A DNA stretch of 64,000 bases from Struthio camelus (taxonomy: Eukaryota > Chordata > Aves > Struthioniformes > Struthionidae), in contig NC_090982.1 of assembly GCF_040807025.1 (NCBI RefSeq), positions 77,045,931-77,109,930 on the forward strand. Reading direction: 5' to 3'. Numbering within the stretch: the stretch's first letter is position 1; every line of letters starts with the position of its first letter. Positions 13,699 through 63,257 of this stretch are shown here, piece by piece. The notes beneath the pieces are model-generated. The model ran no database searches. It had not been told where the DNA came from and worked only from the letters and a program-made list of their open reading frames with translations. The translations under genes were made by a program, and so were the position numbers.

Positions 13699-14330
13699 CT
13701 GAGGGGACACCCAGCACCAATGAAGGTCCCTCACTCCACGACTGAGGGGATACTCGGTGCCGATGGGGGTCCCCCACCCCAAGGCCAAGGAGATGCCAGG
13801 TGCCAAGGGGGTCCCTCACCCCACGGCTGAGGGGACACCCAGCACCAAGGAGGTCCCTCACTCCAAGGCCAAGGGGACACCTGACACCAAGACGGTCCCT
13901 CACCCCACGGCCGAAGGGACACCCGGTGCCAAGGGGGTCCCTCACCCCATGGCCGAGGGCACCCCTCGCCCCACAGCCAAGGGGAAACCCGGTGCTGAGG
14001 GGATCCCTCACTCCATGGCCGAGGGCACCCCTTGCCCTACAGCTGAGGGGAAACCTGGTGCTGAGGGGATCCCTCACTCCATGGCCGAGGGCACCCCTCG
14101 CCCCACGGCCGAGGGGATGGTGTCGGGTGCTGAGGGGGTTCTTCACTCCATGGCTAAGGGCACCCCTCGCCCCACAGCTGAGGGGACTCCTCGCCTCATG
14201 GCGAAGAGGACACCCAGCACCGACGGGGTCCCTCGCCCCCCGGCCGAGGCGACGCGGGGGGGCTGAGCGGGTCCCTCGCCCCCCGGCCGAGGCGGCGCCG
14301 GGCGCTGAGCGGGTCCCTCACGCCACGGCC
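13699..14330. repeat. 42/24-nt minisatellite just upstream of CA9
   Basis: About a dozen imperfect units of 42 nt (type ccgaagggacacccggtgcc ... ccctcaccccatgg) alternate in the second half with 24-nt short units (ccgagggcacccctcgcccc + acag). Both lengths are multiples of three, so long stop-free frames run through it on both strands. It ends about 380 nt before the CA9 start codon. Confidence 0.85.
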
Positions 14331-14575
14331 GCGGTGGGGGAGGGGAACGCCTGGCTGACGGGGTCTCCCGCCCCCTGCCCGGGCCCCGGCTGACGGGGTC
14401 TCCCGCCCCGTGCGCAGGGGCCCGCTCCGTGGCGGGCAGTAGGCGCCGCGGACCCCGGCGCGGGGCTGGGGGGCGGGTCGCGGGTTCGAGTCCCCGCGCG
14501 GGCTGGCGGGCGAGCGGCCGGAGCGGCGGCTCACCTGGCCGGGCAAGGCGGCGGGCAGACTTTGCCTCTAGCCTC

Positions 14576-20800: not shown

Positions 20801-23800
20801 GGCCTGCTGGGACAGGAGCTGGGCCTGGGACACTCGGAAAGGTGTTTAGTCTGGCACTTCTTCCACTGGGAGCCTGTCCCAATGGCTAGTGGTATTTGCT
20901 CTTGAGTAAGACGTGGTTTTGGTGGCTGTTTTCCTGATGAGGAAAACTGCAGACCTGCCTTGCTAAATGCTTTTTCTTGGGACGGCGGGAGGCTGTGGCT
21001 GCTCTAGAGTAGCTGGAAGAGCATTTGTGCCACTTCTCAATGACGGAAGCCACTATCTGTGATTTTTACTGTCGTAACAATGATAACAAATGGCCAAGTC
21101 CCAGCTTTCCCCCTGCATGACATGCGCGGGAGACCTGGCCTTGCCCTGGGGACCTTGACCCTTTCGGCCGGAGGCAGAGCCCTCCGGGAGCATCCCGCTT
21201 GCCACGGTGGAGGCAGGGGGGGATCCAAGTGTGGTGGGAGCCTGGGGACCCGCACCTGGGCCAGGAGTGCTGCCTGGGGAGCTGTGCATGCTGCCAGTCT
21301 TTCCCTTCTACTCACACTCCTTTTTTTTTTCCCCTTTTCCTTTTCAAGGTCCTGGCCAGGGTCACTGGAGCTATAAAGGTAAATACCCTGTGGTTACTCC
21401 TGCTTTTTCCTACCACCCTACAGGCCCTGGGCCTGAGCCAGGTGTGGTTAATGATTACAGGGCTCCCGTGTGCACCCCACAGCTCACCTTTCCCTCCTGC
21501 CCAACCCTGCCAGCTTCGGCAGTGCCGATGGCTGCCCAGGGGCACGGCCGGCTGGATGGGCCCAGGCAGGTGCTCCCATTTGGCTGGGAAGCAGTGGCCC
21601 TGCTCAGGGTTTCCCCAGCCCCCTTGGGCGCGATGGGGATGCCCCTTGTGGTCTGGCTCTCCTGGCCCCAATCCCATGCCAAACCGGGCTCTGCTCTCTA
21701 GGCTGGACTTGCAGCCTCTGCGGGGACTTTGACCTGCCCAGGGCTAAGCCTATGTCCTTGGTCTCCTTCCCTCCTCTCCTGCCATGGCAGGGCTGAGCCT
21801 CCCCGCCGCATCCTGGACGGGCATCACTGCAGCCCTAGTGCCGAGGCAGCCGCTTCACAGCGCGGTGAGCTCGGGGCGCTCCCGCAACGGGGCAGGTGAA
21901 GTGACAGGCTGGAGGGCCAGGCTGTGCAAAGCAGCCAGACCGTGACGAGCTGCAGAGCAGGAGCTCCTCTGCCTGCCAAGTCCCCTCGTAAATCATCTTC
22001 TCACGCTCTTCCCAAACACCCCTAAAATAGACTTTCCTGGCAGCTCACCACGCTCGGAGGCCTTGTCCTAATCCAGCTGCCCACAGTCATGTGGCAGCAC
22101 AGAGCTGCTCCCATGGATGCTCCCAAGCTACCTTGGGGGAAACTAAACTGTGTGCAGGGTTTATTCCCTGGCCTGTGCTTGTCCCCTTCCCTCCTTTCCG
22201 GCGTGCCCCGTGCCCGGGCGGTCTCACGTGCCCTCCCTCCCGAACCAGACTGGCAGGAGTGGAACTTGCACTACCCGGACTGCGGAGGCATGATGCAGTC
22301 ACCCATCAACATCAACACGGCCAAGACCATCTTCAGTCCCCAGCTGCGGCCCATCCAGCTCTCTGGCTACAGCCTGCCCTCCAAGGAGAGACTCAAGCTG
22401 AAAAACAACGGACACACAGGTGGGTGGCTGAAGGGATGTGGCACGGGGCTGGCCTCACCGAGGCCAAGCCGTTGCTCGCAGCCTCTCCTGGCAGGACCGG
22501 GCTGGTCTGAAACTCTTGCGCTCTGGTCTCTGGTGAGGTTGCTGTCTTGTAGGCTTCATTCATACGGTCTCCAAGGCCAAAAGGGCAACATTAGGCTGTC
22601 TAGCCTGTAAGGCCCAAGTGCTTTCCTGGCTGGAGTGGAGAAACCAAGAGATGGAGAACTCACCGCTGCCTTTGGGAGTTTGCTCCAAGAATTTATTGTA
22701 ATCCACACTTCTTTTAAAAAATGGATCCTGGTACTTCTGATATAAGTTTGCAGCTGTTAGTTCCTCTCCTACATTTCACTGTTAAAGGACCATTTGGTCT
22801 CTGATATGACTTTGCCATTAAGGTATTTACCTCTTAGGCTTTTAGGACACAATATCAGTCAAATTCCTTAAGCTATGTGTTAGGATGTTATCTCAGGATC
22901 TTAAGGCATTTTTTTATGGGCCTTTTATATGCCTTCTCCAATTTTAGGGCATTTTTTGGAATGTGAGGACACAGTTTATTCACAGTATTTTAGCATCAGT
23001 CTCACCCTGCCAGGTATAGAGATTAAACCCACCTCCTTCCTGCTCACTACCCCACAGTTATGCATCTGGGAACAGTGGGTCCTGTGTGCTACCATGTCCT
23101 TGTGGGAGCGTGTCAAGTGTTATGTGTGTACTGATGTCGTCATGGCTCAGGGACTGGCAGAGGTAGTAGAGGCCATGACTTAAAATTCATTGAAGGTGTG
23201 ATAAAGCAGCTCACTGCCTTGGTAGCTAGCAAGACAGATTGAGCTGGTCTGTGCATTAAAGCAAACTCAAGGAGTTAGATTTGCTGTGCATGGTCAGAGC
23301 AGCCACGCATTGCATGCACGGAGCTTTATAATGCCTCCTGCCCTAGCGTGCCTGCATAGTTAAACTACTTGAGCTCGGTAGTTGCTATTTTAGACACCCT
23401 GGCATCTGGAGTTGCTTAGTGTTCAGAAAAGCAGTCATAGCACTTTCAGAGAGAGAACAACTCATTTCCCATGTGCTTATAAGATGCCCTTTTTATTATG
23501 GAAACTGCCAATCTTCTGTGATCATTATGAAAAGCCAGAAGTAACTAAAACATCACACATCTACTAGAATATTTGTACAGTTAATCCTTCTTATACTATA
23601 CAATGTACAAAGTTCTGAAGTGAGAATGACTCATATAAATAATAGAAGGAATGCACTAATTAAGATATACAAAAGAAATGTAAAAGCAGATAAACTTCCA
23701 GAGAGGGAGCGATTTCTCACTTCCTGTATTTGAGTTTTGTATCTTTAAGCCCAGTAGCAGGGAACAGAGGAGGGGACGAATGACTCATCATGGTCATATT

Positions 23801-24430
23801 ATGCTGTTAATCCTGAATCTGCGCTCTAGCTCAGTGATGTGACCAAGAGATATTTCACCTATAAATACAGAGGAAGGAAAAGAGTTGATTTTAAAAATCA
23901 AAAGGAGGTGCTCAGAAAGATATGACAGCCTTCCTCAGGCTTCAGAGATTGTTCAAAATATCAGAGCTATTTTGTGGCCTGTCCCAATAACCCAGCTTTA
24001 AGATTTGCCACATTGCTGTATGAGGACTGACTTGCTAGCCAGGACTTGGCCACGGTTTGAATCAGATTAAAGTAAAAGGCAGACAAAAGTATGTATTTAT
24101 AGCATCCATACAGGCAAAGCTTTAACTCTGAATGACTGCAGAAGAGTAATGCTTCCATAACAGCAGTCCTAGTGCTTGTCATACACTTACAGGCCACTTT
24201 ACTTGAATGGTCCTAGCTTGCCAATGATACAGCGCTCTCTTTACAGCTACTCTGCTCTCATAGGTGTTTAACGCTTCACCAATATCTTTCTCCATGAATT
24301 TTGTCTACAGTCTCTTTATGCTTGCTTACTGAATAAATTATGGGGTAACATCTGGCTTAGAACTAACCCCTGGGAGATTCTGCAGAGAGGTTGTTCTGCT
24401 CTTCGGTATTTCCCCAGCAGCTACTTTTGA

Positions 24431-24472
<42 letters not shown>

Positions 24473-27400
24473 CAAGGTGTCCTACAACCTGAAGCTGAAA
24501 GTTGAAGCCAGCTGCATTGGCACAGCTCTGTTCATTGCAGCCTCATTAAAGATTGAAAGAAAGTTTGTTTGTTGTGACCAATTTCCACAAACCCAAGGTG
24601 ACCCTCTCCCATGAGATGTCTCCTCTGCGCTCCTGTATGAAGGATCAAGCTTTGCATTTTACTGACCAGCCTCTTCCTTCTGCTCCTGCAGTTGTCCTTA
24701 AGCTGCCCGAGTCGCTGGCCATCACCGGTGGCTATGCCCAGCAGTACAGAGCTGTGCAGCTGCACCTGCACTGGGGCTCCCTGACGGGACCTGGCTCAGA
24801 GCACACCATCAATAATCACCGCTTTCCCGCAGAGGTAAGGAGCTCCTGCTCCTCCTTGCCGCCCTCCGCAGTGCTGCCCTCGCCTCTCCCAGCGTCTGCA
24901 CAGAGAAGGTGCTGGTGTCCTGTCCCATGGCACCATTTGCCGCTGGATGAATGTTGTAATTGTTTGGCAAGGATCTCTGCTTCCCCGATCGCCTCTGCAG
25001 GGTCAGAGTTTAGTGTAGGAGAGCACCAGCACCTAAAGTAAGAGCTGTGTCTGTGACGTGGCCTGCAGCACAAAGGCAGCCCCTGAGGACGCTCTGCCCA
25101 TGGGTGGGTTTGGGTAGAGCTGGCCTGAAGCAGGGACAAGGCGAACAGGAAGAGGTTGCCCTGCAGGAGAGGCAGCACACCCCCCCAGCATGCCCTGAGA
25201 TGTGGTGGACTCTTCCTCAGGCAGCTGAGCCTGTTCCCCCCCGTGCTGCAGCCCGGCCCTGGGCTGATGGAGCAGGAGCCACGGTGGCCCCAGGCTGGGG
25301 GAGACAGCCCCCTGGGCAGCCTGCTGCGGAGAGCTGTTTACTCTGAACACAGACCGCTTTCCTACTCTGCCAGGTCCCATCTGGTTTTATCCCTCCTTCT
25401 CTAGCACTTGTCCTCAAACCAAACCCAGCTCTGCAGTAAGTTGTCCGTTCCCCCCACCCCCTTCCCCCAGGGCAGGTTTGCTGGCTGTGACCAGGGAAGT
25501 TAAGGTGGGGAACTCTTCACGCTTGCTGCCCTGCAGTGGCATGTTTTCTTGGCCCCACCAGCATGTTTGCTCCCTACGATGGGTGCTCGGTGAGGGTGCA
25601 CGTCTCTCCCAGCCCTTGCTGTGGCAGGTTGGCTGCGCAGAGCCCCATGGCGGTGTGCACCTTCTGGATGTGCCTGTGCTGCATCGGGGCTTGCACCTTT
25701 CCCTTCCAGATCCACGTGGTACACTACAACACCAAGTATGACAACTTTGAGGAGGCGATGGTCCACCCAGATGGCCTGGCAGTGCTGGGAGCCTTCCTGC
25801 AGGTGAGGCCAATAGCTCAGGCTAGGGCAAGAGGGGTAGGAGCAGGACTGGGCGGGGAGCAAGACTAGGGTGGCAGAGTCAGCCACAGCTCCAGGGACAG
25901 GCAAAAGTGCCTGGGGAGAAGGAGACTGAGGGCAGGGTGGCCCTGGTGGGGGGAAGGGGCTGACTGGGGCAGGGTGCCCTGTGTTGGGAGCAATTCCTGC
26001 TTGCTGGCACTGCCATTGGCTGCCTGTTCCACTCTGGTCTCTGTGCTCTTCATTTCTGTGGGGGCTCTGCTTTGCAGGTTGGGCCAAGGGAGAATCCATA
26101 CTATCGGCAAATACTTGAGCATCTGTATACGATCCAGGGAGAAGGTAAGGCACTGTCCCACCTAGTACTTGTCTTGGGGTGCAGCAGCCAGGCAGGGAAA
26201 CTCAGTGCATGGCAGAGAAGGGCAGCAGCCCACACAGAAGAGAAGCGTTGCAGAGTCTGTGCAGAAACAGCTTTCCAAGGTGCCCTTTGCAGCGCTTGCG
26301 CATGCTTTCTCCTGACTCCAGGGCAAATCTGCTGCCCCTGGCTCGACCATATTACAGCCAGGGAGCAGGTTCCCTGGGTAAACGTGGTGCAAAGCTAGGC
26401 TTGGGGATGCCCCGGGTCAGATCTGCTCTAGGGATCCCCATGCTCTGGTGCTGTTCCTGTCTGAGGTTTTGTGTTCTGGACAGTGTTGCCCCATAGTGGG
26501 ACGGTGCTCTTCTGGATAGCCTGGCCTCCCTGCTGGGTTGCACTGCTCTAACTGGTGTTTCTTCTCCCAGGTGAAGAAGTCCTTGTGCCTGGATTCAACA
26601 TTGCTGGCCTGCTGCCTGCCAACCTGAACCTCTACTTCCACTATAACGGCTCTCTGACCACCCCTGCCTGCTATCAGACAGTGAAGTGGACAATCTTCAA
26701 CCAGACCGTGCAGCTGTCTCAAGATCAGGTCTGTCCGGGCACCGAGCCTCTCCCCCTGCTCTTGCCCAGCCTTTCCCCGTAGCGTGCAGCACCCTCGCTC
26801 CTAAGCCAGGCCCCGGTGGGACTCGCCTTGCTCCCGAGCCATCTCCTGAAGGCAGGGGCTCTGCTCCCGAAGGCAGGGCACCTTCGGCTCTGCTCATGCT
26901 GCTTTCCTGCCAGATCTCAGTGCTGGTGACGACCCTGAGGGGGGACGACGACAGCCCTCTGCAGAACAACTTCCGGCGGTTGCAGGAGCTGCATGGGCGA
27001 CACGTGCTGGCGAGTTTCCAGACTGCCCTCACGTCGGTGAAGCAGCTGCCTCCTGGTAAGGAGAGTGCGAACGTGCTCAGGTCATACTCCGCGGTGAGGT
27101 GCGGGAGGGACAGGCTGAGGAGTCGGAGTCAAGGTTTTGCTTCTCTCGTGGGGATGCAGTGTTGGCATGGGTTACCCTGCCCGGCAGAAGACTTACAGCA
27201 GCACTGGCCTCAGGGTCCCATCCTCCCCCATTTTGCACACTTGTCTTGTCCTGCATGGGGAAGATCAGTTTCTAGGAGTGATTTTTGTCCTCGGTCATGC
27301 AGAAGCAATAGTAACACAGGCTGAAGGATGTATGGGGCAGGCTTAAAGGCAAACAGCAAACTCGTAGCAACTCAGGTGCTTGGGAACGTCATCCTCAAAT

Positions 27401-30265
27401 CTAGTAGCTAAATTTAGTTCGGCGTTCACCTTGCGCTCAGTTCGTCCGCGAAGGCCTTTCTTGTGTTGGTGGTTTCCAACTATGTGTTTGTGGCTCTGCA
27501 GAAATTCCTGTCAGTCCTCAGGTGCGACTATCACTTTGCATCACTGAATTCTTGCCTGTTTCTATACTTTGAGATCACTTGGGCTTTTCTGTCCAACATC
27601 CTGTTCCTTTCCTGTTCTGATGGCATTTCCTCCTTAATATCATTATTCCCACACCTTGTGTAGGGTGACTAATAAAAATAGTACACAAGATTGGTCCCAG
27701 GCCTTCGGGAAAAACCTCAAGTAACCGCATGCTGGCATGCCACTTCCCCTCTCCGTTCCAGCTCCCCGTAGCCAGCTCACTGCTGGCCGTATGCTTTTAA
27801 TCACCGTGTTCTTCAGCCTCCCGAGCACTTTCCCATGTGGCACTGCATCAAATGCTTCACTGAAGTCTGGAGAGATAAAATCTACTGCATTTCCTTTGTC
27901 TAGAATATCAGTTATCAAAGAAGGATATCGGGTTAGGCTGGCATGCTCTATCTTTGGTAAACCTGCTAGACATTTTATCACATTTTCCATTTACCTCCAA
28001 GCCTTTTGTGACTTTCTTGCAGAAGCTGTTCTAAGGCCTTTAGTTGCTGAAGCTTAGATGAGGGGGTGGAGTTGTCCAGCTCAGCTTTTTCTTTTCTTAT
28101 TTGCTATTTAAATCAAACAACCCCAACTTTAACGAACCCGTGAAGGCCTTGTTCCTGGATTTGCAGTTCTGAGTGCCAGGACGCTGTCCCAGTAGTCCTG
28201 GATGTGATTACCTTGCCCCCTGCCTTGTGTGCATTGGGTTGTTCAAGTTTTGTTCCCACTTCTGCTCTGATAATTAGCCATCATATGCCTTTGCCCCATG
28301 CACTGGACTTATTGAATGCTGAGATCAAGTGCTTATTCAGCTTTGGGGTCATGTCTCACTTAGCTTTCATCTATACCTCCTGTGCCCGCGCTTGTTGATC
28401 TTTCCCGAGTCGCCAGCAGTTCAGGAAAGCAGCACTGGCCCAGGCTGCTGGGTGAAGGAGGCAAGTTCGGCTGAGCTGCTGGGTCCTGCTGGATATTGCC
28501 CACAGATAGATAGTGCCACTCCGTGCACGATACAGATGTGTACAGATGATAATGCAACCCTTTTAAAGGCAATGGTATAGTGGTAGGTAAATACTTGCCT
28601 GGCACGGCCCCCACCCAGTATTTAGGGCCCAGACACAGTCCCTGCCTCGATGCTGGCCGCTGAGCCGTCCCTACGCGGGATGCCCTGCCGGAAACAGCCA
28701 GGGCCGTGGGGACGCGGAGGTGGCTGCACTGCCTCCCACCAGCCTGGTGTGGGCTGCCCACTCTCTCTCGGGGGCAGAGGCTGGCGGGAGCCTGTCTGCA
28801 CCTCCCCAAGCCGGCAGTGAAGAGGTGAGCCTGTGTTTCATCCCACTGTTTACCCACAGGCAGCGGAGGCTCTCCAGGGAGGCCGCCCCTCGGGGGTGCT
28901 GCGGGGGCAAAGCCCAGCCTGGCCCCACGAGCAGGTACCGCTGTGCTGGTGGTGGGCCTGCCGTTTCTGCGGGGAGCGTGGGGTTTCTTGCCCTGCTCCT
29001 GGCTCGGGGAGCTGACTCGCCTGGCCGGGCTCTTGCCTGGGTTGCGCGTCCGCGGGCCACTGCAGTGCTGCTCTGCCCGCTCAGCTCTGCGGCCGGCTGC
29101 TTTCCAGGCACGGAGCAGCAGAGGGCAGAGTGGTGGGGGAGATGGCTTTTGGCTGGGCTCAGTGAGTCTTCCATGTTAGGTGGTGGTTCAGCAATTCTTT
29201 TTTTTTCCTTCTCCAATGTTTCTGGCTGCGAGCTGCTCAGGGTGCAAAGGGCAGCCCTCCCTCGACTGCTCAAAGAGGGTGGGGGATTTTGCAGACCACC
29301 TTGCTTTGCCTGTGCTACCCCCTTAGCTCTGCAGACTTGACACGCCCCCTCGACCCAACACCTTGGGAAACCTCTTGACCATGCCGTATCTCTTTCAGGT
29401 GGTGACAGCTCATCAGAGGCAGGTAGGTGAGAGCCCTGGGGCTGCTGGCCCAAAGGAGGGAGGTGGGTAACGCAACATTGGGGTGGTACCTGCCTGGGAA
29501 AGGGGTGGCCCGGCAGCTGTGCACTGAGCTGGGAGGGTGCTGAGCTGTCCTGGGCCTCTGTAGCATCTGTGCAGTGGGGGGGGGTCTCACAGTTGTCCTC
29601 TCACATCTGTGTTTAGGTGCAGAAAAACACACGAGTTCCTTTCAGGCAGGTAAGCACGCTCAGCTGAGGCTGCTGGCTTCGGGTCGTCTTTGCCTTCTGT
29701 CCATGGGCTCCTGGCCTTTCCCAGCCTTGCCCCATCTCCCTTGGCCCATAGCTGCAGGGGACCATCCCCATTGTAACGTGCCTGTGCTCGGCTCACTTGC
29801 AGGGGATGTGCTGGCTGTGCTCTTCGGGGTGCTCTTTGCTGTCACCGCGCTGGCCTTCCTGCTCTACATCCACAAACACCGCAACCAGAATGCACGGTGA
29901 GTGATGGGATGTGCAGGGAGCTGCAGACTAGGAGGAGGGGGGCTGCATGGATCGTGGCTGGGGACAGGGGACTGTGAGGTGCCAGGGACACATCTGAGGC
30001 AGCAGTCCCTGCTTGAGTGATGGAAATGTGTGCCCATGTATGCATGTGTACGTGAAGGGGGGGGAGGTTAAGGGTTGTCTCTAGGACAACGAGTGCTAGT
30101 CTCATGGGAAAGGGGTTAGTAGGGCTTTTTTAGTGTTGCCTCTTCAGGCCCCCCTCCCTGTCTGCTCTAACACGCCTCTGCTTTTCCTCCCCCCCCAGGC
30201 TGGACTCGCCGACCAAATCCAAGGTCATCTACACGGCAGCCACCACAGATGAGAACGCAGTGTGA
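14707..30265 (+). CDS. CA9: Carbonic anhydrase 9 (transmembrane, extracellular catalytic domain), 12 exons
   Basis: A zinc enzyme of the cell surface that hydrates CO2 and regulates outside pH. Joined exons (14707-14809, 21349-21378, 22249-22419, 24692-24834, 25710-25802, 26078-26144, 26571-26728, 26914-27055, 29399-29422, 29617-29649, 29803-29896, 30199-30265) give 1,125 nt, 374 aa, in frame throughout. Signal peptide is about residues 1-25. The alpha-CA domain is about 42-300: zinc ligands His126, His128 and His151, proton shuttle His100, Glu138-Thr232 pair, cysteines 56 and 236 positioned for the family disulfide, N-glycosylation site Asn246 (NQT). A stalk, a transmembrane helix (324-344) and a cytoplasmic tail ending DENAV follow. 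The membrane exon ([19 protein letters not shown]) matches CA9 rather than CA12 or CA14, and the neighbours TPM2 and TLN1 are those of human CA9. The proteoglycan-like domain of human CA9 is absent. Confidence 0.93.
14810..21348 (+). other. CA9: CA9 intron 1 (6.5 kb)
   Basis: GC-rich at the start (CpG-island shoulder to about 15.3 kb), then unique-looking DNA with one CR1 insertion. I see no further exon with conserved coding sequence; an exon for a proteoglycan-like domain was looked for and not found. The following intron 2 (21,379-22,248) also holds nothing recognisable. Confidence 0.6.
18991..19362 (-). mobile_element. CR1 non-LTR retrotransposon, truncated 3' end
   Basis: On the plus strand it begins cacagaatcacagaat, the reverse complement of the CR1 3' terminal repeat. 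It continues with the classic 'gacctctggagatcatctag', 'ctgctcaagcagggtcacct' and 'ctctgtcaccctcacagtga' segments. The minus strand still reads the pol C-terminus ([19 protein letters not shown]). It is 5'-truncated as usual and relatively little decayed. Confidence 0.92.
21349..21378 (+). CDS. CA9: CA9 exon 2 (30-nt micro-exon)
   Basis: The acceptor follows a T/C-rich tract (ttttcaag|gt) and the donor is AAAG|GTAAAT. It encodes [10 protein letters not shown], equivalent to the SHWRYGG entry of the catalytic domain in human CA9, whose second exon is also very short. Phase 1 at both ends fits its neighbours. Confidence 0.88.
22249..22419 (+). CDS. CA9: CA9 exon 3: start of catalytic domain
   Basis: The 171 nt hold the QSPININT motif (equivalent to QSPVDI), Cys56, and the NNGHT motif with the proton-shuttle histidine. 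Acceptor is cgaaccag|ac and donor cacacag|gtgggt. Confidence 0.95.
22420..24691 (+). other. CA9: CA9 intron 3 with old repeat relics
   Basis: A/T-richer than the flanking exons. Around 22,560-22,900 the text 'aaggccaaaagggcaacatt' then 'aggctgtctagcctgtaagg' resembles an old interspersed repeat widespread in sauropsids (identity uncertain). A 35-T homopolymer is listed separately. No exon is seen. Confidence 0.45.
24434..24468. repeat. Uninterrupted T35 homopolymer
   Basis: Thirty-five consecutive T residues, 223 nt before CA9 exon 4. It could be the poly-A tail of a minus-strand retroposed sequence lying to its right, or simple slippage. No target-site duplication was identified. Confidence 0.85.
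24692..24834 (+). CDS. CA9: CA9 exon 4: first two zinc ligands
   Basis: The 143 nt contain QLHLHWG (zinc ligands His126 and His128) and GSEHT with the gatekeeper glutamate. Acceptor is ctcctgcag|tt and donor cagag|gtaagg; the exon ends in phase 0. Confidence 0.95.
24835..25709 (+). other. CA9: CA9 intron 4
   Basis: 875 nt of unique-looking intron with no exon, repeat or motif that I can support. Introns 5 (25,803-26,077), 6 (26,145-26,570) and 7 (26,729-26,913) are similarly plain. Confidence 0.5.
25710..25802 (+). CDS. CA9: CA9 exon 5: third zinc ligand
   Basis: The 93 nt encode [10 protein letters not shown] through [10 protein letters not shown]. The first histidine is the third zinc ligand. 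Acceptor is cccttccag|atc and donor ctgcag|gtgagg. Confidence 0.95.
26078..26144 (+). CDS. CA9: CA9 exon 6
   Basis: The 67 nt encode [20 protein letters not shown] plus GE. Acceptor is tttgcag|gtt, donor gagaag|gtaagg, exit phase 1. Confidence 0.93.
26571..26728 (+). CDS. CA9: CA9 exon 7: active-site threonine, disulfide cysteine and glycosylation site
   Basis: The 158 nt encode the conserved [12 protein letters not shown] segment with the Thr199-equivalent (residue 232) and Cys236, then [10 protein letters not shown], which keeps the N-glycosylation site known in human CA9. Donor is gatcag|gtctgt. Confidence 0.95.
26914..27055 (+). CDS. CA9: CA9 exon 8: end of catalytic domain
   Basis: The 142 nt encode the C-terminal part of the CA fold ([20 protein letters not shown]). 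Acceptor is tgccag|atc, donor cctg|gtaagg, exit phase 1. Confidence 0.92.
27056..29398 (+). other. CA9: CA9 intron 8 (2.3 kb)
   Basis: It separates the catalytic domain from the stalk exons and contains an antisense CR1-like relic (listed separately). A GC-rich stretch at 28.6-29.1 kb holds no in-phase exon. Confidence 0.5.
27660..28060 (-). repeat. Old CR1-type reverse transcriptase relic, antisense
   Basis: The minus strand reads [20 protein letters not shown] then [12 protein letters not shown], matching the LINE reverse transcriptase core DKGNAVD...LDFSKAFDTVPH. Other frames are broken. The element is old and both ends are unclear. Confidence 0.8.
29399..29422 (+). CDS. CA9: CA9 stalk micro-exon A (24 nt)
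   Basis: Acceptor is ctctttcag|gt and donor aggcag|gtaggt. It encodes GGDSSSEA in phase 1/phase 1, so it can be included or skipped without a frame change. It lies where human CA9 has its short exon 9, between the catalytic domain and the membrane helix. Confidence 0.7.
29617..29649 (+). CDS. CA9: CA9 stalk micro-exon B (33 nt)
   Basis: Acceptor is tgtgtttag|gt and donor caggcag|gtaagc. It encodes [11 protein letters not shown], phase 1/phase 1, a serine/threonine-rich juxtamembrane stalk. Human CA9 has only one exon at this position. Confidence 0.7.
29803..29896 (+). CDS. CA9: CA9 transmembrane exon
   Basis: The 94 nt encode [19 protein letters not shown], a single hydrophobic helix, then basic residues (HKHRNQNAR) that fix the cytoplasmic side. 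Acceptor is acttgcag|gg, donor gcacg|gtgagt, exit phase 2. Confidence 0.93.
30199..30265 (+). CDS. CA9: CA9 last exon: cytoplasmic tail and stop
   Basis: The acceptor follows a C-rich tract (ccccccag|gc). It encodes [16 protein letters not shown]... ending DENAV and TGA at 30,263-30,265. The KVIY...T.. pattern is shared with the tails of CA12 and CA14. Confidence 0.9.
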
Positions 30266-31556: not shown

Positions 31557-32513
31557 GGTATAAAAGCCCAGTGTGGACAAAATCGCATTCTCAGCCCTGA
31601 GCCCGATGGTAATTTCTACCTCCCGGTCCTGTAGCGCATCCTCAGGGCTGATGCCCTGCTGAAAAGTCCCTCTCCAACCCTGGGAGAGGGAAATGATCCA
31701 CTGGAATGGTCCCCTGAATGTCACACCCACCCCTCCCAAGCTTTGCTGGCACCAGGGGTGGGGTGACTTGTCATCCTGAGCCCCCAGCCACTATCCAGCC
31801 AGGCCCATGTCTGCCAGGCACTGCACCCTCCTCCCACCCTGGGTAGCTCCAACCCCCTTTTCCCCGCCCCATGCCAGCTGCCAATGGTGCCCTGCACCTT
31901 ACCACCGCTCCACCAGCCTCCCCTACCCGCACTGGGGTGCCAACTCACTGCAGCTGCCACAGTTCAGCACCAGGGCAAAGCCTCGCAGTGCAGCAAGCCT
32001 GGGTGAAGAGGTGGAGAAAGTAGCACCACAGCGTTTGGCCCCAGCCCAGAGCGTGACAATGCCCTGCAAGGCTGCTTCCTCCACCCCAGGGGAGGAGGAA
32101 GAGGAGGAGCGATGTCTCCCTCCAGCACAGGGGACAGCATATCTTCCATATCTTCTGTGGTGGGGGAAGAAGCAATGTGTTTCTTCAGGCTTGGGCCTCA
32201 GGCAGTCCAAGGTAACATCCTTCCCAAGCAGGCTAACTCAGCCTTCAGTTGCAGCATGGCAGGGCCAGCAAAGCCGAGTCCCCCAAGCAGGGCTGTTCTG
32301 CGGGGGCTCCCAAAGGGGCAGAGGAGCGAGCCAGCCCCAGCGACGACAATCTGCTGGCTGCTGCAGCAGGACCGGAGCACCTGCCCCGCAGGGCCTGGCC
32401 GGTGTCCTCCATTCCAGGAGAAAATATATTGCAGAGAAGGTGACGGCCGCTCTAGCCGACAGAACGGAGGGGAGGGCAGGGGGCAGCTGGGGACAGGAAC
32501 ATCCCACAGGGCC
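31557..32513 (-). other. APH1 3' UTR
   Basis: The sequence between the stop codon at 32,514-32,516 and the AATAAA signal is GC-rich and carries no further in-phase coding exon. Confidence 0.55.
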
Positions 32514-32551
32514 TCAGGATCCTGGCTGTGGGCTGGCTCCACTCTGTGAAC
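32514..32551 (-). CDS. APH1 exon 7: short C-terminal tail
   Basis: Acceptor CCTGTAG|GTTCAC joins in phase to give C-SQSGASPQPGS and TGA. The tail is hydrophilic and poorly conserved in the family. If the preceding intron is retained, a different 23-residue tail results (see findings). Confidence 0.75.
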
Positions 32552-35500
32552 CTACAGGAACAAAGAGACGGGGGTCAGATTTCAGCAAACTTCTTGCCCC
32601 ATCCATTTCCTACAGCAGAGGCAACAATCCAGCTAAGGCCCCAAACCACAGAGTTTCCTAACCTGTCTGTGGTAGCGAAGGAGATCACATCCTTGCTTCA
32701 GCCTCTGATTGAGACAACCCCCGACCCTCAGCACTGTCCCAGCTCCTCACAGGTAGCCCAGAAGGGACCAGCCCAGCCAGCTACTGAGTCCCCCTGTAAT
32801 GGAGCAGGACTTACAGAGCAGGAAGCGACGCACGTTCTGGGCAGAGCCCCCTGACAGCAGGTAGGCCCAGGTGGCAGCGACAGCCATCAGCAGGTAGGAG
32901 GGCACCAGGCTGCCCACGTACAGGGGGTTGCAAAACGTCTGGGGAAGAGAAGCAGGAGAGGGAAAGGGTAAGCGGGCAGGAAAGGGATCTCTCAAGCCCT
33001 TGCTGCTGGACACAGCCATCATGTCCTGCTCCTCTCTCTTCCCCCGGGACAGCAGCTCTGGTGAGGGGCTGGGATGGGACAGGCACACGTGGCAGCATCA
33101 CAGCCCATGGCCTTGCTGAGCTGGCAGAGTACCGGGGCAGGAGAAACCAGCTCCAGCCGTTTGCCTTTGTCAAGGGCCCATCCCATGTGGGGCTGCTTCC
33201 AAGTCCCCAAACATCAACAGCTTTGTTGCTGTCGAAGGCTCTTCCTTCCTCTCTGGGCAGGGGGACTATCACATACCAAAGCCATTCCTGAACACAGGCC
33301 CCTAGCACACGGCTCCGCTCCCTGCTACTCACCGATCCCGAAACAGCAAGGTGCATGACAACAACAGCCATGATCTCCCACCAGCGCCGGTTCTCACAGC
33401 CATGGAAAAAGAGGATCCCCCAGAAGGTGTGAAGGAAAATCAGCACCATGGTCATAAAGGCTGCAGGGAGCAGCACAGAGGGGAGTCACAGGAGAGTCAC
33501 CCACCCCATCCTGTGGACTTAGGCTGGTGGAGAGGAGTCAGGCCAGGGAAGACGAGTGGTGGCACTACTGGGCTGAACTAGTAAGCACATGGGCACACCT
33601 TGAGTGTGGGAGGGATGGGGGACAGGCGCAGGGAGGGTAGCAGGCCACAGAGAGAAGGGTTTTGCACAGAACGCTCTTGCAGGTGGGGGGCTAAGAAAGG
33701 TATGGGGAGTAGCAGCAAAATGTAGCACGAAGGGGAGAGGACTGGGGGCTAAGGCTGTCATTCATGGGGCTGCACATCTCCGTGATGAGGCACAGTGGAG
33801 GGGCAGAGATGTGGGAGAAGGGTCGGGCTTGTCACTCACCCGAGGTCAAGAAGTAAAGCTGTGAGTCCCCATGGATCCCCACGGTGCCAGGCCCTAACGC
33901 GTCTGCCAGGAGATTGATCATGGAGAAGGCACCGCTCATGAGCCCAAAGCCCACGCCAGCCACTGCCAGGACAAAGACACTGTAAGGCCCTGAGCCCACA
34001 GCTCCAGCAGCCTCCCAGGGCCACCTACACCCAGGCACCGCCTAATCCCGCAAGAGACCCAGCCTGCTTTGGTGTGAGAAACCTCCCTTTCCTCTTGGCA
34101 AGAGGCCCAGCACCTCCCTATGGCCCAGGTTCACCCTGTGGGGCCACCTCTGGCTCTGCATTTGGGGTGCCCTGCTCTGCCCGCCACTCACCGTATGCCA
34201 TTTGCTGGATGGAAATCGGGGAGCAGCCATCTTCGCTGAGGGCCACGAGACCTTCAATAGCCTTCCTACAGAGAGGAGAGCACGTTGGAGCACAGCACAG
34301 CACGGCACGGCACGGCACGGCTGCAGCACCAAGGACGAACTGGGCAGCAAGCCAGGATTTCATCCTGCATCAACCCGCCCTCTTTGTAATCTCACAAAAG
34401 GAAGGGTGCAGCTGTGACACAATTGGGTCTCTGACAGACACCTGACTTTATGCTGAAAGATACTGCGATTGACTGATTGATTGATTGACTGGCACTTTGC
34501 ATATCACTAGACCACAGCAATAAACATTTATGACTTGGCTGACAAACTCCAGCAAGGAGCGCTGACTGAGGGCATCAGGATCAGTGCTCTTGCGTGTTCC
34601 CATTACTGAATTGGCAGCAACTGCAAAAACCACCATGGAGAGTATCTGTGGGACCTCCCTAATTGCCTGACAAACCATGCACACAAAAGACATACATTAG
34701 TGAAGCCAAATACAAACATTTTCCACATAGGAAGATGGATGCAAGCCAACCCTATAGACTAAGTGTAGGGGAAAACAGAATGCTGTGGGCCCAACGGGCA
34801 GCATCCTTGCACGAGGCTGCAGAAAACAGTACTGCTGCCGACATAGGAAGCATACACCCGTGAGACTGCACCGGGTCTTTGCATCCGTATTTTTAAAAGA
34901 GGTTGAAAAAACAGGGAGGGTGCAGAGAAGAGCTCAAAGAGCTAGAAAAATTGCTTTGGGGGAGAGACTCAGGAGCCTGGCCTGACAAATTTCATCAGCT
35001 TTGGGCTCTGGTGGGTAAGGAGAAATACAGAAAGCCTCTTCAGCCTGGAGGAGGAAAGCAGCACTAGAAGTTGCTGGGCTTCTGCAGAACAAAACGCAAT
35101 GGTTTATGTTACAGAGGGTAATCTACGGATCTCTGCTACCCTCTGCCTTCCTGGCTCCAGCAATGCCTTGCTGTAGGGAGTGGTGTGAGCTCACATACCA
35201 ACCACTGGCTGAACAACTGGCACTGCTTCCACACACGCCCCTACCCAAGTCCGGACCTTTCCCAAGCCCCTCGTTCCCAAGCTATCACCCTTTCCCTGCC
35301 TTTCTCTTGCTCCCAGCCCTTCCTGCATGCGTACTCCCTGCACCACGCTATGCTTGGGGAATAGGTGTGTGCAGCCAGCTGGCAAGGCAGGGACTGCTGG
35401 GATCCCAGCATTGCCTCCTTTTGGCCATCCGTGCTGCCCAGTGCGCAGGCTGCCTTGGGCCGTCCAAAAGCCCACGCGACTGGCAGCGCATGCTCAGCCC

Positions 35501-38500
35501 GGCAGGTGGCAGGGATCCCTGCGCTCCCGCCTGGCAGCGCCCAGGAAGCCAGAGATTTTCTGAGGTTGGGCTTAGACTTTGCCCTGGACTGGCCAGGATG
35601 CCAAGCACGAGGCAGAGGCAGTTACCGACGGTGATGCGCCATCCCAGCAACAACGTCCCAGCACCGCCAGACTGACTGTCCAAGCCCCTGGCGCACTCCC
35701 TTGCTGCAGAAGGCAGGTTGAGGTCACACTAGAGGCTCCTCGCTGCGGGGCTGAGCCCAGGTGTGGACCGTGCCATGGGGCACGGAGGATGCAGGATCAG
35801 AAGTCAGGACTTGCTTTGGAGAGATGCTGTGCTCCAGCACACCTCACTGGCAGTCCTGCTCCCTCCCCTCAGGGGGATTCACTGCCTGCCAGCACCATCT
35901 CAGGGCTCTTTATCTCAGCCCCGGAGCGGGGCACAGAGCAGCTGGCAGGGTTGCCCCGGCCCAGGGTACGCACCCTGTAGGAGACAGCTAGGCCCCGAGG
36001 GCTGGCCTTCCCGTCACAGAAAGGTAGGGCAGAGCCAGGAGGCTCTGGGAAGACTCTAGGCGGTCTAACACCCAAGTGCAGGTCGCTGGAACAGCTCCTG
36101 CCGGCCTTGACACCTGCAAAGCAGCTTTGCTACTTAAGGGAGGGGCAAAGCGATTCCTAGCAGAACAGCTCATATCTCTGGGCCTGATGGGGCAGAAACT
36201 CCCAAGAAAATCCAGGTCGAAGGCACCTCTCCCTGCGCCAAGGACTCAGGGCATCGCAAGAATGGTCCCCCAATGGCGGGACCTGCTCTGACTCCTGGCC
36301 ACACAGGGCTGATCCTGACCAGGAGGCCTGGCCTCTGACCTGATGGCAGGGGACCGTCCCTGAGCCCCGCTAGAACATCCAAGATTAATGTTTCTCAGTC
36401 AGGCTCAGGACCGACAAACCACTCTGGCCATGTTATCACCACCCCTCAGGAGGGGAGTCATCAAAGCATCCTGAACCTGACACCCAAATCTGAAGATGAC
36501 AGAGAGCTGTAGGCACTGCTGTGGATCTCTCCCCCACAGACAACACTATTACACAACTCCTTGCCATTTCCCTAGGCCTGAGCCATTTAGCTTTGAGGAT
36601 AACACGAGGCCTAACACTGGCTCACAAACAATGTGACACTGTACCAGCCAAGACAGGCGCCTCGGATGAGGCAGAGCCCTGAAATCACCTTCAGGCTGTT
36701 CCTGCTGAAACAAAGAAAAAGAAATCCCTAAGAAAGGAACAAAACTTGCTGGAACACGGGGGTAGATCCATAACCCTTCTCCTTCATCCACACAGCAAAG
36801 CGGGAGGTTTTCTGTCTGGCATCCCACAGGCATTTGTCCAAGCTATGGGAGCACTCCTGAATCTAGCCAAAACAGCCTGCTGGGAAGGCAGGACAGAGCT
36901 GATGTTACACATCCTGTAACAGCGTAAAATCACAGCCTACCTGTCCTGAATTAAGAGAAACCAGCCAGCTCAGGCATCAATCCTCCAGACCTTAGAGATG
37001 TTCTTCCCCACCACCAGAGCTAGACTCGATGTTCATGTACTGACCTAGCTGTGACACAGAGATTTTAACTGTACGAGTCTTTGCCTCCTAAAAAACGTTG
37101 ATCGAGATCCTGAGCAGAGTGCAGGCACAGGATGCAGAGAGAAAGGGCAGGGGAAGGGCAATACCAGTCCATCCCCAGATTCTGGGACCAGCCCAGGGCT
37201 CACTGAGGCCCACGGGAAATTTAAGCTGCCTCTCAGGGTATTGCCACCAGGCTCCAAAGAACATCTCAGCAGATAGGAAGCGCTGACATCCTCTGGCTAT
37301 GCCACAGCGAGATGGCAAAGCCTACAACCAGCTGGGTCACCGAAAAGCCTCCTCCTCATGCCAGGCTAATGCCATGTCCCTTACCTGAGGAGTTTGTAGT
37401 AGAGAAAACGGAAGGCCTCCTGCAGCAGCACAGAAAACATCACCCCAAATATCAAGAGCCCCTTCTGCAATGGTTCATCATTGGGGTCACTGGCTTTAAC
37501 AGCAATAAACCAGATCAGGGAGGAGAGCAGCAGCGAGACCAGCCAGAAAAAAGCCCTGAAAAAAGAGACAGAGAGACTGCTAAACAGAGAGCACTTGTGC
37601 TGGGCTCAAAGAGATAATTCCTGCCTCGGGCAAAAGATCTCCTTCTGCACTCAAGCAGCACACACAGTGCCTGGTGCTGGGGAGACAGGTCTGCACATCC
37701 ACAGATGGATCAGCTGGCATGCATCTGTGGAGATCCCTGGCTTCGCACCAGGCGAGGAGGTGTCTGGGCTGGGGATAACCACTGTCCTGCACCAAGAGGC
37801 TCCTCTCAGGGCCAATACATACTTTCTGCTGTGGGCCTAGACTGAGTAGAGAACACACTCCTTGCCTGCTCAAGACAAAGGCTGCTAGAAAGCAGCAAGC
37901 GCCTTTCTCCTCAAGGCTAGGTTCACACTTGAAGGGGACCAGCCCTGCGGTGTAAGGCATGTTTTACACCTGCATCAAAGAGGTGCATGAAAAATTCCCA
38001 AGAGTAGTGCTTTGCGGAAAGGCCCCAGGGGCCGGGCAGGTTGTACCTCGGCCCGGACAAGGACTTTGGCTGAGAGCCTGCTCCTTGCCTGCCCTGACGC
38101 GGTTGTCTTGCCTTTGCAGCTCTCGGCTGTAACACTGCCAGGATGTGCAGACGTGCTGAGCTGGTTCCCTGCCGCCCTCTGTCCTCCCAGGGACTGCCCT
38201 GTGGCCAGGCACAGGCACAAAGGACACTGTTCCCTCCCACCATGACCGCGCTTGGCCGCACAGGCCCCAAGGAAGCAGAGGCACGCAGAGGCACAAGGCA
38301 GGGGAGAGGTCTGTTGGCATCCCACCACCTTCCTGAAGGATCTGCCTGGGTCACAGGCGAGGCCCTCAGGGGCCATCCGAACCCCAGGAAGGGGCCATGC
38401 CTCTCCTGTGCTCATGGCACAGCTGAGTCCCCACGGCAGGGGATGTCCCCACAGCAGGGGATTCCCAGTGCCATTCCCAGCTCAGGAAGACATGTGCCCA

Positions 38501-39600
38501 GCGGGACACCCCAACCTGAGGGTCTTGCCCCATCTGCCCAGTGTACGCTGACCTCGCGCCCGTCACCGCATCCAGCGGCGGCACCAGCCACATGCCCACT
38601 TGGGCTCAGCACCGGGGGGCACAGCCTGCAACACGCCGATGCCCACCTGCAGCCAGCCTGCATGCCACAGCGACTGTGCCAGCACTGGTGCCGTGCCTAC
38701 GCCACTGCCATGCCGGTACCAGCACCGTCCCCATGCAGTACCGGTACCAGTGCTGCGCTTGTGCCACACCGGCACCAGCGTCCCTCTTGTGTTGGTGCTG
38801 ATGCTGTCCCCCTGCTACGCCTGTGCCGGTACCAGGCAGCACCTGTGCCCTCTGACTGTTGGCACTGCTGCTGTGGCAGTGTCCCTGCTGCGCCACTACC
38901 AACACTAGGCTGACAGTGGTACCAGTGCCTCTGCCATGCCCATACTGGCACCAGCGCTGTACTGGTACTGGTGGCGGTGCCATGCCCATTCTGTCGGTGG
39001 CGCTAGGGCTGGGCGTGCAGCCCTCTTGTGCTAGTACCAGTGTCCCTCTTGCGCCTCTGCCAGTACTGGTACCAGCACCAGTGCCATGCCTGTGCCGACT
39101 GGGGTGCCGGAGCTGTGCCTGCCCCCTTCCCGTGTTGGTGCTGGTACCGGTACCGGTACCAGCGCTGTGCTGGGGCTGCCAGCACCGGTACCTGTGCGGC
39201 ACCTATGCCTCTCCTGTGCTGGTACCAGTACTAGCACCAGCGCCCCCCCAGCGCGGGTGCCGGTAGCGGGGCCCCGGCCATGCCAACGCTGGTACCGGAC
39301 CCACTGCCAGCGCCCCCCCATGCCCAAACTGGTACCAGTGCCAGTACCAGTGCTGCTCCAATGCTATGCCAGTCCCAGGGGCCTTGTCACGCCCTGCCGG
39401 TACCAGCACTGGTCCCTGGTGGCCCTGCCGTGCCCGGGCCATCCCGGTGCCGGCGGCCGCGCGGGCCCCGTGCGGAGCGGGACTGACCCGGCGATGAGGA
39501 TGATGATGCGGAGCGGGTCGCGGGCGATGGTGAAGAGGAAGAGGCCGAGCGCCGGCCCGAAGGCGATGAAGGTGCACCCGAAGAAGACGGCGAGCGTCAT
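32514..39600 (-). CDS. APH-1 family gamma-secretase subunit, 7 exons, candidate third APH1 paralog
   Basis: A seven-pass membrane scaffold subunit of gamma-secretase, needed with presenilin, nicastrin and PEN-2 for cleavage of Notch, APP and other substrates. Joined exons (39600-39488, 37555-37385, 34265-34192, 33962-33840, 33460-33333, 32938-32815, 32551-32514) give 771 nt, 256 aa, in frame. Family features are intact: N-terminus VFFGCTFIAFGP, glycine zipper Gly122/Gly126/Gly130 and the two conserved intramembrane histidines His171 and His197, all at the human APH1A residue numbers. Residues 104-118 (ALSEDGCSPISIQQM) look like APH1A rather than APH1B; the N-terminus MT and short tail (SQSGASPQPGS) do not settle it. 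It lies between CA9 and TPM2, where mammals have no APH1. It could be APH1A relocated, but synteny favours a separate ohnolog. No gene symbol is given for that reason. Confidence 0.92.
32815..32938 (-). CDS. APH1 exon 6: last membrane helix
   Basis: The 124 nt encode TFCNPLYVGSLVPSYLLMAV through SAQNVRRFLL. Acceptor is CCCCAG|ACG, donor CTCT|GTAAGT, exit phase 1. Confidence 0.92.
33333..33460 (-). CDS. APH1 exon 5: conserved histidines
   Basis: The 128 nt encode FMTMVLIFLHTFWGILFF through VVVMHLAVSGS and carry the two conserved intramembrane histidines. Acceptor is CTGCAG|CC, donor ATCG|GTGAGT, exit phase 0. Confidence 0.94.
33840..33962 (-). CDS. APH1 exon 4: glycine zipper helix
   Basis: The 123 nt encode AGVGFGLMSGAFSMINLLAD through GIHGDSQLYFLTS. 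The G-x3-G-x3-G motif required for complex assembly in the family is present. Acceptor is TGGCAG|TGG, donor TCGG|GTGAGT. Confidence 0.94.
34192..34265 (-). CDS. APH1 exon 3
   Basis: The 74 nt encode KAIEGLVALSEDGCSPISIQ plus QMAY, the loop that best separates APH1A-like from APH1B-like proteins; here it is APH1A-like. Acceptor is CTGTAG|GAAG, donor TACG|GTGAGT. Confidence 0.93.
34266..37384 (-). other. APH1 intron 2 (3.1 kb)
   Basis: Contains a CR1-like relic, a short GATT microsatellite near 34,463-34,488 and a GGCAC pentamer run near 34,300-34,320. No exon is seen. Introns 4 (33,461-33,839) and 5 (32,939-33,332) are plain. Confidence 0.5.
34880..35060 (+). repeat. Decayed CR1-type fragment
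   Basis: 'gggtgcagagaagagctcaa' followed by 'gggggagagactcaggagcc' and 'cagcctggaggagg' matches the layout of the CR1 3' region (GAGRVQRRAQRA... EERLRSL). Frames are broken. Confidence 0.55.
37385..37555 (-). CDS. APH1 exon 2
   Basis: The 171 nt encode AFFWLVSLLLSSLIWFIAVK and on to LLQEAFRFLYYKLL, helices 2-3 of the family. Acceptor is TTTTTTCAG|GGC, donor CTCAG|GTAAGG. Confidence 0.93.
37556..39487 (-). other. APH1 intron 1
   Basis: 1.9 kb. Its half nearest exon 1 is filled by a GGTACC-rich minisatellite, listed separately. No exon is seen in the rest. Confidence 0.55.
38690..39420. repeat. Degenerate GGTACC-rich minisatellite in APH1 intron 1
   Basis: Short units around 'gtgctggtaccagtgcc' repeat with variation. 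The palindrome GGTACC occurs roughly a dozen times, as in 'ctggtaccggtaccggtacc' near 39,140. Units appear in both orientations. The long frames across it are by-products of the repeat. Confidence 0.8.
39488..39600 (-). CDS. APH1 exon 1
   Basis: The ATG sits in a strong context (GCCGCCATGA) in a CpG island. It encodes MTLAVFFGCTFIAFGP..., the first membrane helix, ending ILIAG. Donor is CGCCGG|GTCAGT, exit phase 2. Confidence 0.93.
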
Positions 39601-41702: not shown

Positions 41703-57890
<16,188 letters not shown>

Positions 57891-57989: not shown

Positions 57990-58970
57990 GCTGGCGGCAC
58001 CTCTGGTGGCACTGCGTTAGGGGCAGCCTGCGCTGGGGACACCCCGGTGACACTGGGTTGGGGCAGCTTGGGGGCACTGTGCTGGGGACACTCTGGTGAC
58101 ACTGGGTTATGGGCAGCCGGGGGGCACCGCGGTGGGGACACCCCGGTGGCACTGGGTTGGGGCACCCTGGTGGCACTGCAATGGGGACACCCTGGTGACA
58201 TTGGGTTAGGGGCAGCTGGTGGGTACTGCTCTGGGGACACCCTGGTGACAATGGGTTGGGGCAGCTTGGGGGCACTGTGCTGGGGACACCCTGGTGACAC
58301 TGGGTTACAGGCAGCCGGGGGCACCGCGGTGGGGACACTCCGGTGGCACTAGGTCAGGGGCAGCCGGGGGGCACCGCGGTGGGGACACCCCGGTGGCACT
58401 GGGTTAGGGGCACCCTGGTGGCACTGCAGTGGGGACACCCCTGGTGACATTGGGTTAGGGGCAGCTGGTGGGTACTGCTCTGGGGACACCCTGGTGACAC
58501 TGGGTTGGGGCAGCTTGGGGGCACTGTGCTGGGGACACCCCGGTGACTCTGGGTTGGGGCAGCTTGGGGGCACTGTGCTGGGGACACTCTGGTGACACTG
58601 GGTTGGGGCAGCTTGGGGGCACTGTGCTGGGGACACCCCGGTGACTCTGGGTTGGAGCACCCCGGTGGCACTGTGCTGGGGACACCCCAGTGATAGTGGG
58701 CTAGGGGCAGCCCAGTGGCACTGCGCTGCAGACACCCCGGTGACACTGGGTTAGAGGTACCCTGGTGGCACTGACTGGGGACACCCCCAGTGACACTGGG
58801 TTAGGGGCAGCTGGGGGACACTGGATGAGGGGCAACCCGGGGGCGCTGCACTGGGGACACCCTGGTGGCACTGCACTGGGGACACCCCCGTGACACTGGG
58901 TTAGTAGCACCCTGGTGGCACTGCGCTGGGGCACACCCACGGGCTGGGATTGATTTGGGGACACCCACAG
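57990..58970. repeat. About 50-bp minisatellite upstream of TPM2
   Basis: About 19-20 imperfect units of the type 'ggggacaccctggtgacact' + 'gggttggggcagcttggggg' + 'cactgtgct'. Long antisense frames rich in Pro, Ser and Cys are repeat by-products. It starts about 265 nt upstream of the exon 1a start codon. Confidence 0.88.
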
Positions 58971-63125: not shown

Positions 63126-63257
63126 TCAGTTCTGCTCCTCGTCCCGCAGCTCCGAGGGCAGGAACTTGTACTGCTGTTGCCGGATCATGGCCAACTTCTT
63201 CCGGGCCTCCTCCAGCTCCCGCTCCTTGCGCAGCATCTCCTCCTGGGCAGCGATGAT
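63126..63257 (-). CDS. TLN1: Talin-1, last coding exon (gene continues beyond window)
   Basis: Talin links integrin tails to actin at focal adhesions. This exon (acceptor GGCAG|ATCATC, phase 0, 43 codons and TGA) encodes IIAAQEEMLRKERELEEARK then KLAMIRQQQYKFLPSELRDE and EQN, the C-terminal dimerisation helix next to the actin-binding THATCH domain. FLPSELRDE is the talin-1 form; talin-2 has LPTELREDE. The rest of the gene lies beyond the right edge. Position and strand beside TPM2 match human 9p13. Confidence 0.95.
   Translation of the reverse strand: MIAAQEEMLRKERELEEARKKLAMIRQQQYKFLPSELRDEEQN

What the first reader, a model, noticed from the sequence alone, without database searches (positions are those of the whole stretch)
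32514..39600. Intact APH1 gene at the CA9-TPM2-TLN1 locus: candidate third vertebrate APH1 ohnolog
Seen: a complete seven-exon, 256-aa APH-1 reading frame with all family residues (Gly122/126/130, His171, His197), a CpG promoter and a poly(A) signal. Known: mammals have APH1A (1q21, beside CA14) and APH1B (15q22, near CA12), and none beside CA9. Inference: this is the third copy from the two early vertebrate genome duplications, kept in sauropsids and lost in mammals. It would add a gamma-secretase subtype. The protein mixes APH1A-like (SEDG.SPIS loop) and non-APH1A features, as expected of a separate branch.
Basis: partly seen in the sequence, partly recalled or inferred. Interest (0 to 1): 0.8.

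Follow-up and report, generated by a model that had tools for sequence, protein, structure and literature searches.

The report
Third APH1 gene in a bird
A bird genome carries, on what are probably its sex chromosomes, an intact third version of APH1, a building block of the gamma-secretase enzyme; mammals keep a different pair of the same ancient set, and of the copy that mammals kept (APH1B) this bird shows only a decayed fragment.

Summary
Observation confirmed, interpretation largely supported. The window (contig C41, probably Z) holds a 7-exon, 256-aa APH1 gene on the minus strand between CA9 and TPM2, with TLN1 next. All six introns are GT-AG; exons 1-6 have the same lengths as those of the same bird's APH1A. 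A four-taxon tree keeps it out of the APH1A pair (AU p 0.0185 and 0.0221 for the two alternatives). No intact APH1B was found; at its expected place (RAB8B-[APH1B]-CA12, C12) lies a frame-broken exon-2 relic (17.9 bits; best of 80 block shuffles 12.2). APH1 is tail-to-tail with a carbonic anhydrase gene at both intact loci. Simplest reading: reciprocal loss, mammals keeping A+B, this bird A+third. A near-identical copy (same protein) lies on C40, probably W. Untested: other species, a rooted tree, expression, function. Earlier paralogon work used APH1 with chicken Z; its figure could not be seen, so the gene may already be catalogued.

The parts
39488..39600 (-). APH1 exon 1 (start codon at 39600), in a CpG-rich promoter region
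   Evidence: donor gtcagt; CpG o/e 0.89-1.06
37385..37555 (-). APH1 exon 2 (171 nt)
   Evidence: same length as in bird APH1A; one synonymous C/T difference from the C40 copy
34192..34265 (-). APH1 exon 3 (74 nt; SEDG.SPIS loop)
   Evidence: same length as in bird APH1A
33840..33962 (-). APH1 exon 4 (123 nt; Gly122/126/130)
   Evidence: same length as in bird APH1A
33333..33460 (-). APH1 exon 5 (128 nt; His171, His197)
   Evidence: same length as in bird APH1A
32815..32938 (-). APH1 exon 6 (124 nt)
   Evidence: same length as in bird APH1A
32514..32551 (-). APH1 exon 7, 38 nt, short C-terminal tail SQSGASPQPGS; the least certain exon
   Evidence: acceptor cctgtag; 38 nt against 65 nt in bird APH1A, and the tail does not resemble the bird APH1A tail
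32425..32430 (-). variant poly(A) signal AATATA, 83 nt after the stop
22260..29891 (+). CA9, catalytic-domain exons to membrane anchor (the 5' part lies further left and was not delimited), tail-to-tail with APH1
44809..57725 (-). TPM2-type tropomyosin: first exon 57612-57725, a second possible first exon 52164-52295, last exon 44809-44886
63126..63257 (-). C-terminal coding end of TLN1
   Evidence: motif recalled; talin middle domain at C41:77136914-77137775

Best explanation
The feature is an intact third APH1 gene, an ohnolog of APH1A and APH1B left by the two early vertebrate genome duplications, still in its ancestral place between a carbonic anhydrase (CA9) and the tropomyosin/talin genes (TPM2, TLN1). 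In this bird it is one of two surviving APH1 genes; APH1B has decayed to a relic. By homology (inferred, not shown) its product is a seven-span membrane scaffold that pairs with nicastrin, receives presenilin and PEN-2, and so forms an alternative gamma-secretase. Birds of this kind would then have APH1A- and APH1-Z-containing complexes instead of the mammalian A and B set. Shown: gene structure, a separate APH1A, no intact APH1B found, a relic in the APH1B slot, synteny, position outside the APH1A pair. Inferred: origin by 2R, expression, complex formation, any difference in substrate processing.
For: Complete open gene with all seven assembly residues. Separate APH1A in the same genome, 78.8% identical to human A, against 63.7% and 61.5% for the window protein with human and bird A and 57.3% with human B; human A-B is 59.0%. 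The topology with (human A, bird A) together is best (RELL 0.983); the other two are rejected by AU (0.0185, 0.0221). Neighbourhoods: C41 CA9-APH1-tropomyosin-talin; C30 CA14-APH1A, with a tropomyosin 1.7 Mb away; C12 talin-tropomyosin-RAB8 type-[relic]-CA12. APH1 and the carbonic anhydrase converge at C30 and C41, and so do the relic and CA12. The relic scores 17.9 bits; 0 of 80 shuffles (200-base blocks reversed and permuted) reach it (20, best 12.2; 60, best 10.8); four real control stretches, about 76 kb together, reach at most 6.0; the reversed 160 kb gives a best tblastn E of 0.52 against 0.002. PMC6354393 section 7 part 1 independently places APH1 among the neighbour families of a 2R paralogon that includes chicken Z.
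Against: No sequences from other sauropsids, frogs or fishes could be used, so the tree has four taxa and no outgroup and cannot place the gene relative to the A/B split; the BIC-chosen model, mtZOA+G4, is a mitochondrial matrix (the same topology has 100% bootstrap under JTT+G). No expression data. The relic is one exon, in two frames, E 6.4e-4 by HMM; no other APH1B exon was recognised. The C-terminal tail (exon 7) is unlike the APH1A tail. No second species was available to show purifying selection; the C40 copy is too similar. The genome searches score only the best candidates, so a very diverged or unassembled APH1B could be missed.
Confidence: 0.85

Rival explanations
1. It is a relocated or duplicated APH1B: a bird APH1B copy moved into the CA9-TPM2 interval and the original at CA12 then decayed.
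For: No intact APH1B found elsewhere, and a decayed relic at CA12. The unrooted tree puts the window gene and human B on the same side.
Against: It would have to land, with all its introns, tail-to-tail beside the ohnologous carbonic anhydrase and next to tropomyosin. Identity to human B is 57.3%, far below the 78.8% of the human-bird APH1A pair, though B-type genes may evolve faster (human B branch 0.50). At columns where it matches only one human paralog it matches A in 38 and B in 22.
Confidence: 0.07
2. It is a bird-lineage duplicate or relocated copy of APH1A.
For: Its nearest human protein is APH1A and it shares the SEDG.SPIS loop.
Against: Intact APH1A is beside CA14 on C30. The window protein is about equally far from human A (63.7%) and bird A (61.5%), and the topology joining it to bird A is rejected (AU 0.0221).
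Confidence: 0.03
3. It is a third ohnolog but no longer working: untranscribed, or decaying without visible lesions.
For: No RNA evidence. Branch length 0.36 against 0.12 and 0.16 for the two APH1A tips. Unusual C-terminal tail.
Against: The reading frame, six splice-site pairs and all seven assembly residues are intact; the C40 copy differs by one synonymous base in the CDS; human APH1B, a working gene, has a longer branch (0.50).
Confidence: 0.05

Closest known systems
APH1A (human, PDB 5a63 chain C; same bird, C30)
   Same: Family domain, numbering of the assembly residues, exons 1-6 of identical length (bird), SEDG.SPIS loop, tail-to-tail carbonic anhydrase neighbour.
   Different: Only 61.5-63.7% identical while human and bird APH1A share 78.8%; lacks the APH1A tail that the bird APH1A has; lies beside CA9 instead of CA14.
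APH1B (human, PDB 8oqy chain C)
   Same: Family domain, MT.AVFFGC start, total length (256 against 257 aa).
   Different: 57.3% identical; lies beside CA9-TPM2, whereas the APH1B slot (RAB8B-CA12, human order recalled) in this genome holds only a relic.
Rodent Aph1c
   Same: A third APH1 gene in one genome (mice lacking all three, Aph1abc, appear in the abstract start of PMC5538297).
   Different: A tandem copy of Aph1b (recalled), not an ohnolog; the name APH1C is therefore taken.
nAChR paralogon 1 (PMC6354393; section 7, part 1 of 2 read)
   Same: Lists APH1 as a neighbour family in a four-chromosome 2R paralogon that includes chicken Z.
   Different: The text seen names no APH1 gene on Z and says nothing of APH1B loss; the figure and trees were not seen.

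Membership tests
APH-1 family (PF06105) | Full-length match over the curated cut-off | tested here: met
   308.6 bits against 25.6, profile 1-230 of 231
APH-1 family (PF06105) | Gln83, Glu84, Arg87, Gly122, Gly126, His171, His197 | tested here: met
   All seven present; list from PMC8745412, passage
APH-1 family (PF06105) | Assembly into gamma-secretase | not testable with these tools
   Needs an experiment
APH1A | Nests with tetrapod APH1A | tested here: not met
   Four-taxon unrooted tree; separate APH1A present
APH1A | Located beside CA14 | tested here: not met
   Beside CA9; APH1A beside CA14 on C30
APH1B | Located between RAB8B and CA12 | tested here: not met
   That slot on C12 holds a relic; human order recalled
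APH1B | Nests with tetrapod APH1B | tested here: inconclusive
   Only human B was available; unrooted
2R ohnolog of APH1A/APH1B | Lies in the same paralogon with ohnologous neighbours | tested here: met
   CA, tropomyosin and talin paralogs on the same contigs; no talin match on C30
2R ohnolog of APH1A/APH1B | Split from the other copies before jawed vertebrates diverged | tested here: inconclusive
   Shown only to predate the human-bird split of APH1A
2R ohnolog of APH1A/APH1B | Present in other vertebrate classes at CA9-TPM2 | not tested
   No other vertebrate genomes held

The most novel reading that the evidence does not exclude
Mammals and birds each run gamma-secretase on two APH1 genes, but not the same two: from an ancient set of at least three, mammals kept APH1A+APH1B and birds kept APH1A+APH1-Z, each losing the copy that the other kept. 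Bird gamma-secretase would then contain a subtype that no mammal has, encoded on a sex chromosome.
Probability: 0.7. Interest if true: 0.62.

Novelty: new member of a known kind. Interest (0 to 1): 0.52.

Why it matters
Which APH1 is built in affects the Abeta42/40 ratio without moving the epsilon-cut (PMC4683055, abstract), and loss of APH1A or of APH1B gives very different phenotypes (PMC10943082, passages). A third natural version gives structural work an independent variant to compare, and warns that chick and songbird gamma-secretase or Notch work cannot assume the mammalian A/B pair. It also gives a test case of reciprocal ohnolog loss in a core signalling protease.

Tried and rejected
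Relocated APH1A: rejected, since intact APH1A is on C30. Chance open frames: rejected. Retrocopy: rejected, six introns. Viral collection: 74 stretches matched a pattern, none encodes a relative. Rfam: 0 families over gathering score in the window. APH1 elsewhere in the genome: PF06105 gave 12 matches and human APH1B gave 17 at E up to 1; beyond C30/C40/C41 only two weak ones on C4 and C9 (E 0.296 and 0.411), which I take as chance. A rooted tree was not attempted, because only two distinct APH1 sequences were in the PDB and I did not want to type outgroups from memory. Structure prediction was not run.

Prior-art searches: (0 papers; 6; 0; 253, 15 listed; 1, a butterfly genome; 4; 18, 10 listed; 91, 8 listed; 37, 12 listed) was for function. 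No title or abstract start in those listings describes a third vertebrate APH1. Seven papers were opened: PMC6354393 (passage and section 7 part 1), PMC5356439, PMC10943082, PMC8745412, PMC11594159 and PMC2770060 (passages only), PMC4683055 (abstract and outline); none of the passages seen mentions one. PMC11594159 does not contain the word chicken; PMC2770060 used chicken among its species, but its APH1 gene counts were not seen. The library lacks most subscription journals, and gene databases were not searched.

Full report
WHAT IS THERE. The window lies at G000:C41:77045931-77109930 of a 1.45 Gb, 262-contig genome. On its minus strand, 39600 to 32514, is a seven-exon gene with a 771-nt CDS, 256 aa, all six introns GT-AG. 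It matches Pfam Aph-1 end to end and the two human APH1 proteins in the PDB, APH-1A first. The seven residues listed in PMC8745412 as important for complex formation and activity (passage) are all present at their human numbers. The promoter is CpG-rich. Exon 7 is the weakest part of the model.

NEIGHBOURS. Plus strand before it: CA9, whose strung-together pieces score highest with CA9 in the PDB (277 bits, against 227 for CA14 and 210 for CA12). Minus strand beyond it: a tropomyosin, called TPM2 from residues recalled from memory, then the TLN1 C-terminus (recalled motif; talin middle-domain matches further along). The names of the talin and tropomyosin paralogs on other contigs below are likewise given by neighbourhood, not tested.

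PF06105 against the whole genome gave 12 matches, four each on C30, C40 and C41 (only the best candidates are scored). C30 holds an intact 265-aa APH1A with a human-like APH1A tail and with exons 1-6 of the same lengths as in the window gene. Its stop lies 2.4 kb from the nearest matched piece of a carbonic anhydrase that scores highest with CA14 (214.6 bits, against 175.4 for CA12 and 149.9 for CA9). Identities over 244-247 columns: human A-bird A 78.8%, human A-window 63.7%, bird A-window 61.5%, human B-window 57.3%, human A-human B 59.0%, bird A-human B 57.3%. The topology with (human A, bird A) apart from (human B, window) is best; the other two are rejected by AU (0.0185 and 0.0221) under the BIC-chosen mtZOA+G4, and the same tree has 100% bootstrap under JTT+G. 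So the gene is neither APH1A nor a bird-age copy of it. With four taxa and no outgroup the tree cannot say more.

APH1B IS A RELIC. Human APH1B finds no further locus (17 matches at E up to 1; the two outside C30, C40 and C41 have E 0.296 and 0.411). On C12 the APH1B neighbourhood is otherwise in place: a talin at 20.81 Mb, a tropomyosin at 20.995 Mb, a RAB8-type gene on the plus strand at 21050165-21072865 (probe recalled), and CA12 on the minus strand at 21105851-21112704. Between RAB8 and CA12, plus strand, 21080139-21080308, is a frame-broken match to APH1 exon 2: HMM E 6.4e-4 and 17.9 bits, with a second collinear piece of 6.5 bits in another frame; tblastn E 0.002, 0.003 and 0.006 with human A, human B and the window protein. 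Controls: 20 shuffles of the 160 kb in 200-base reversed blocks reached at most 12.2 bits and 60 more at most 10.8; four held real stretches, about 76 kb, at most 6.0; the next best matches in the 160 kb itself were 6.7 and 5.3; the reversed 160 kb gave a best tblastn E of 0.52. The only runs of N in the 160 kb are at 20997557 and 21000490. No other exon was recognised, so the loss looks old (inference). The relic is too decayed to say which paralog it is; that it is APH1B rests on its place.

SYNTENY. APH1 points at a carbonic anhydrase at C30 and C41, and the C12 relic points at CA12. A tropomyosin lies on each of these contigs (on C30, 1.7 Mb away) and a fourth on C26, where no APH1 matched; talins were matched on C12 and C40/C41 and not on C30. 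A gene that merely moved would hardly land in the ohnologous slot. PMC6354393 (section 7, part 1 of 2) treats APH1 as a neighbour family in a 2R paralogon that includes chicken Z, with only ANP32, LINGO, ARHGEF and CELF keeping four copies; its figure was not visible, so a Z-linked APH1 may have been plotted there.

SEX CHROMOSOMES. DM-domain genes lie on C41 (three matches) and C8 (two), none on C40, so C41 is probably Z and C40 (70.4 Mb) W. A 30-kb stretch of C40 is 99.3% identical to window 21442-51484, with 89 mismatches, one of them in the APH1 CDS and synonymous. Such similarity suggests a recombining or recently recombining region (inference).

MECHANISM. By homology the product is the APH1 scaffold of an alternative gamma-secretase. 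That the choice of APH1 changes Abeta42/40 (PMC4683055, abstract) and that APH1A and APH1B knock-outs differ (PMC10943082, passages) make a functional difference plausible; nothing here tests it.

VERDICT. A real gene, most likely the third 2R APH1 ohnolog, kept while APH1B was lost. A new member of a known family; the notable part is the reciprocal loss. Whether it holds across birds and sauropsids, and whether gene databases already list it, could not be tested here.

Noticed in passing
G000:C12:21080139-21080308 (locus L032): Frame-broken relic of APH1 exon 2 between a RAB8-type gene and CA12, the expected place of APH1B.
   Followed up: yes
window 21442-51484 and G000:C40:57529000-57558999: The region has a 99.3% identical second copy on a 70.4 Mb contig without DM-domain matches, probably W; such a long, little-diverged W suggests a ratite-like bird (inference).
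   Followed up: partly
window 38540-39480: Intron 1 of APH1 is full of ACCGGTACC/ACCAGTACC-like words, seen by eye; Tandem Repeats Finder calls no array there.
   Followed up: partly
window 27643-27990 and 19066-19374, minus strand: Fragments that read like CR1-type LINE reverse transcriptase (recognised from memory in the open frames).
   Followed up: no
window 13692-14331: G+C-rich minisatellite-like arrays, units of 24 to 135 bases, some way before the CA9 exons.
   Followed up: partly
window 58028-58938 and 56986-57549: Two further tandem arrays (49-base unit, 18 copies; 31-base unit, 18 copies) flanking the first tropomyosin exon.
   Followed up: no
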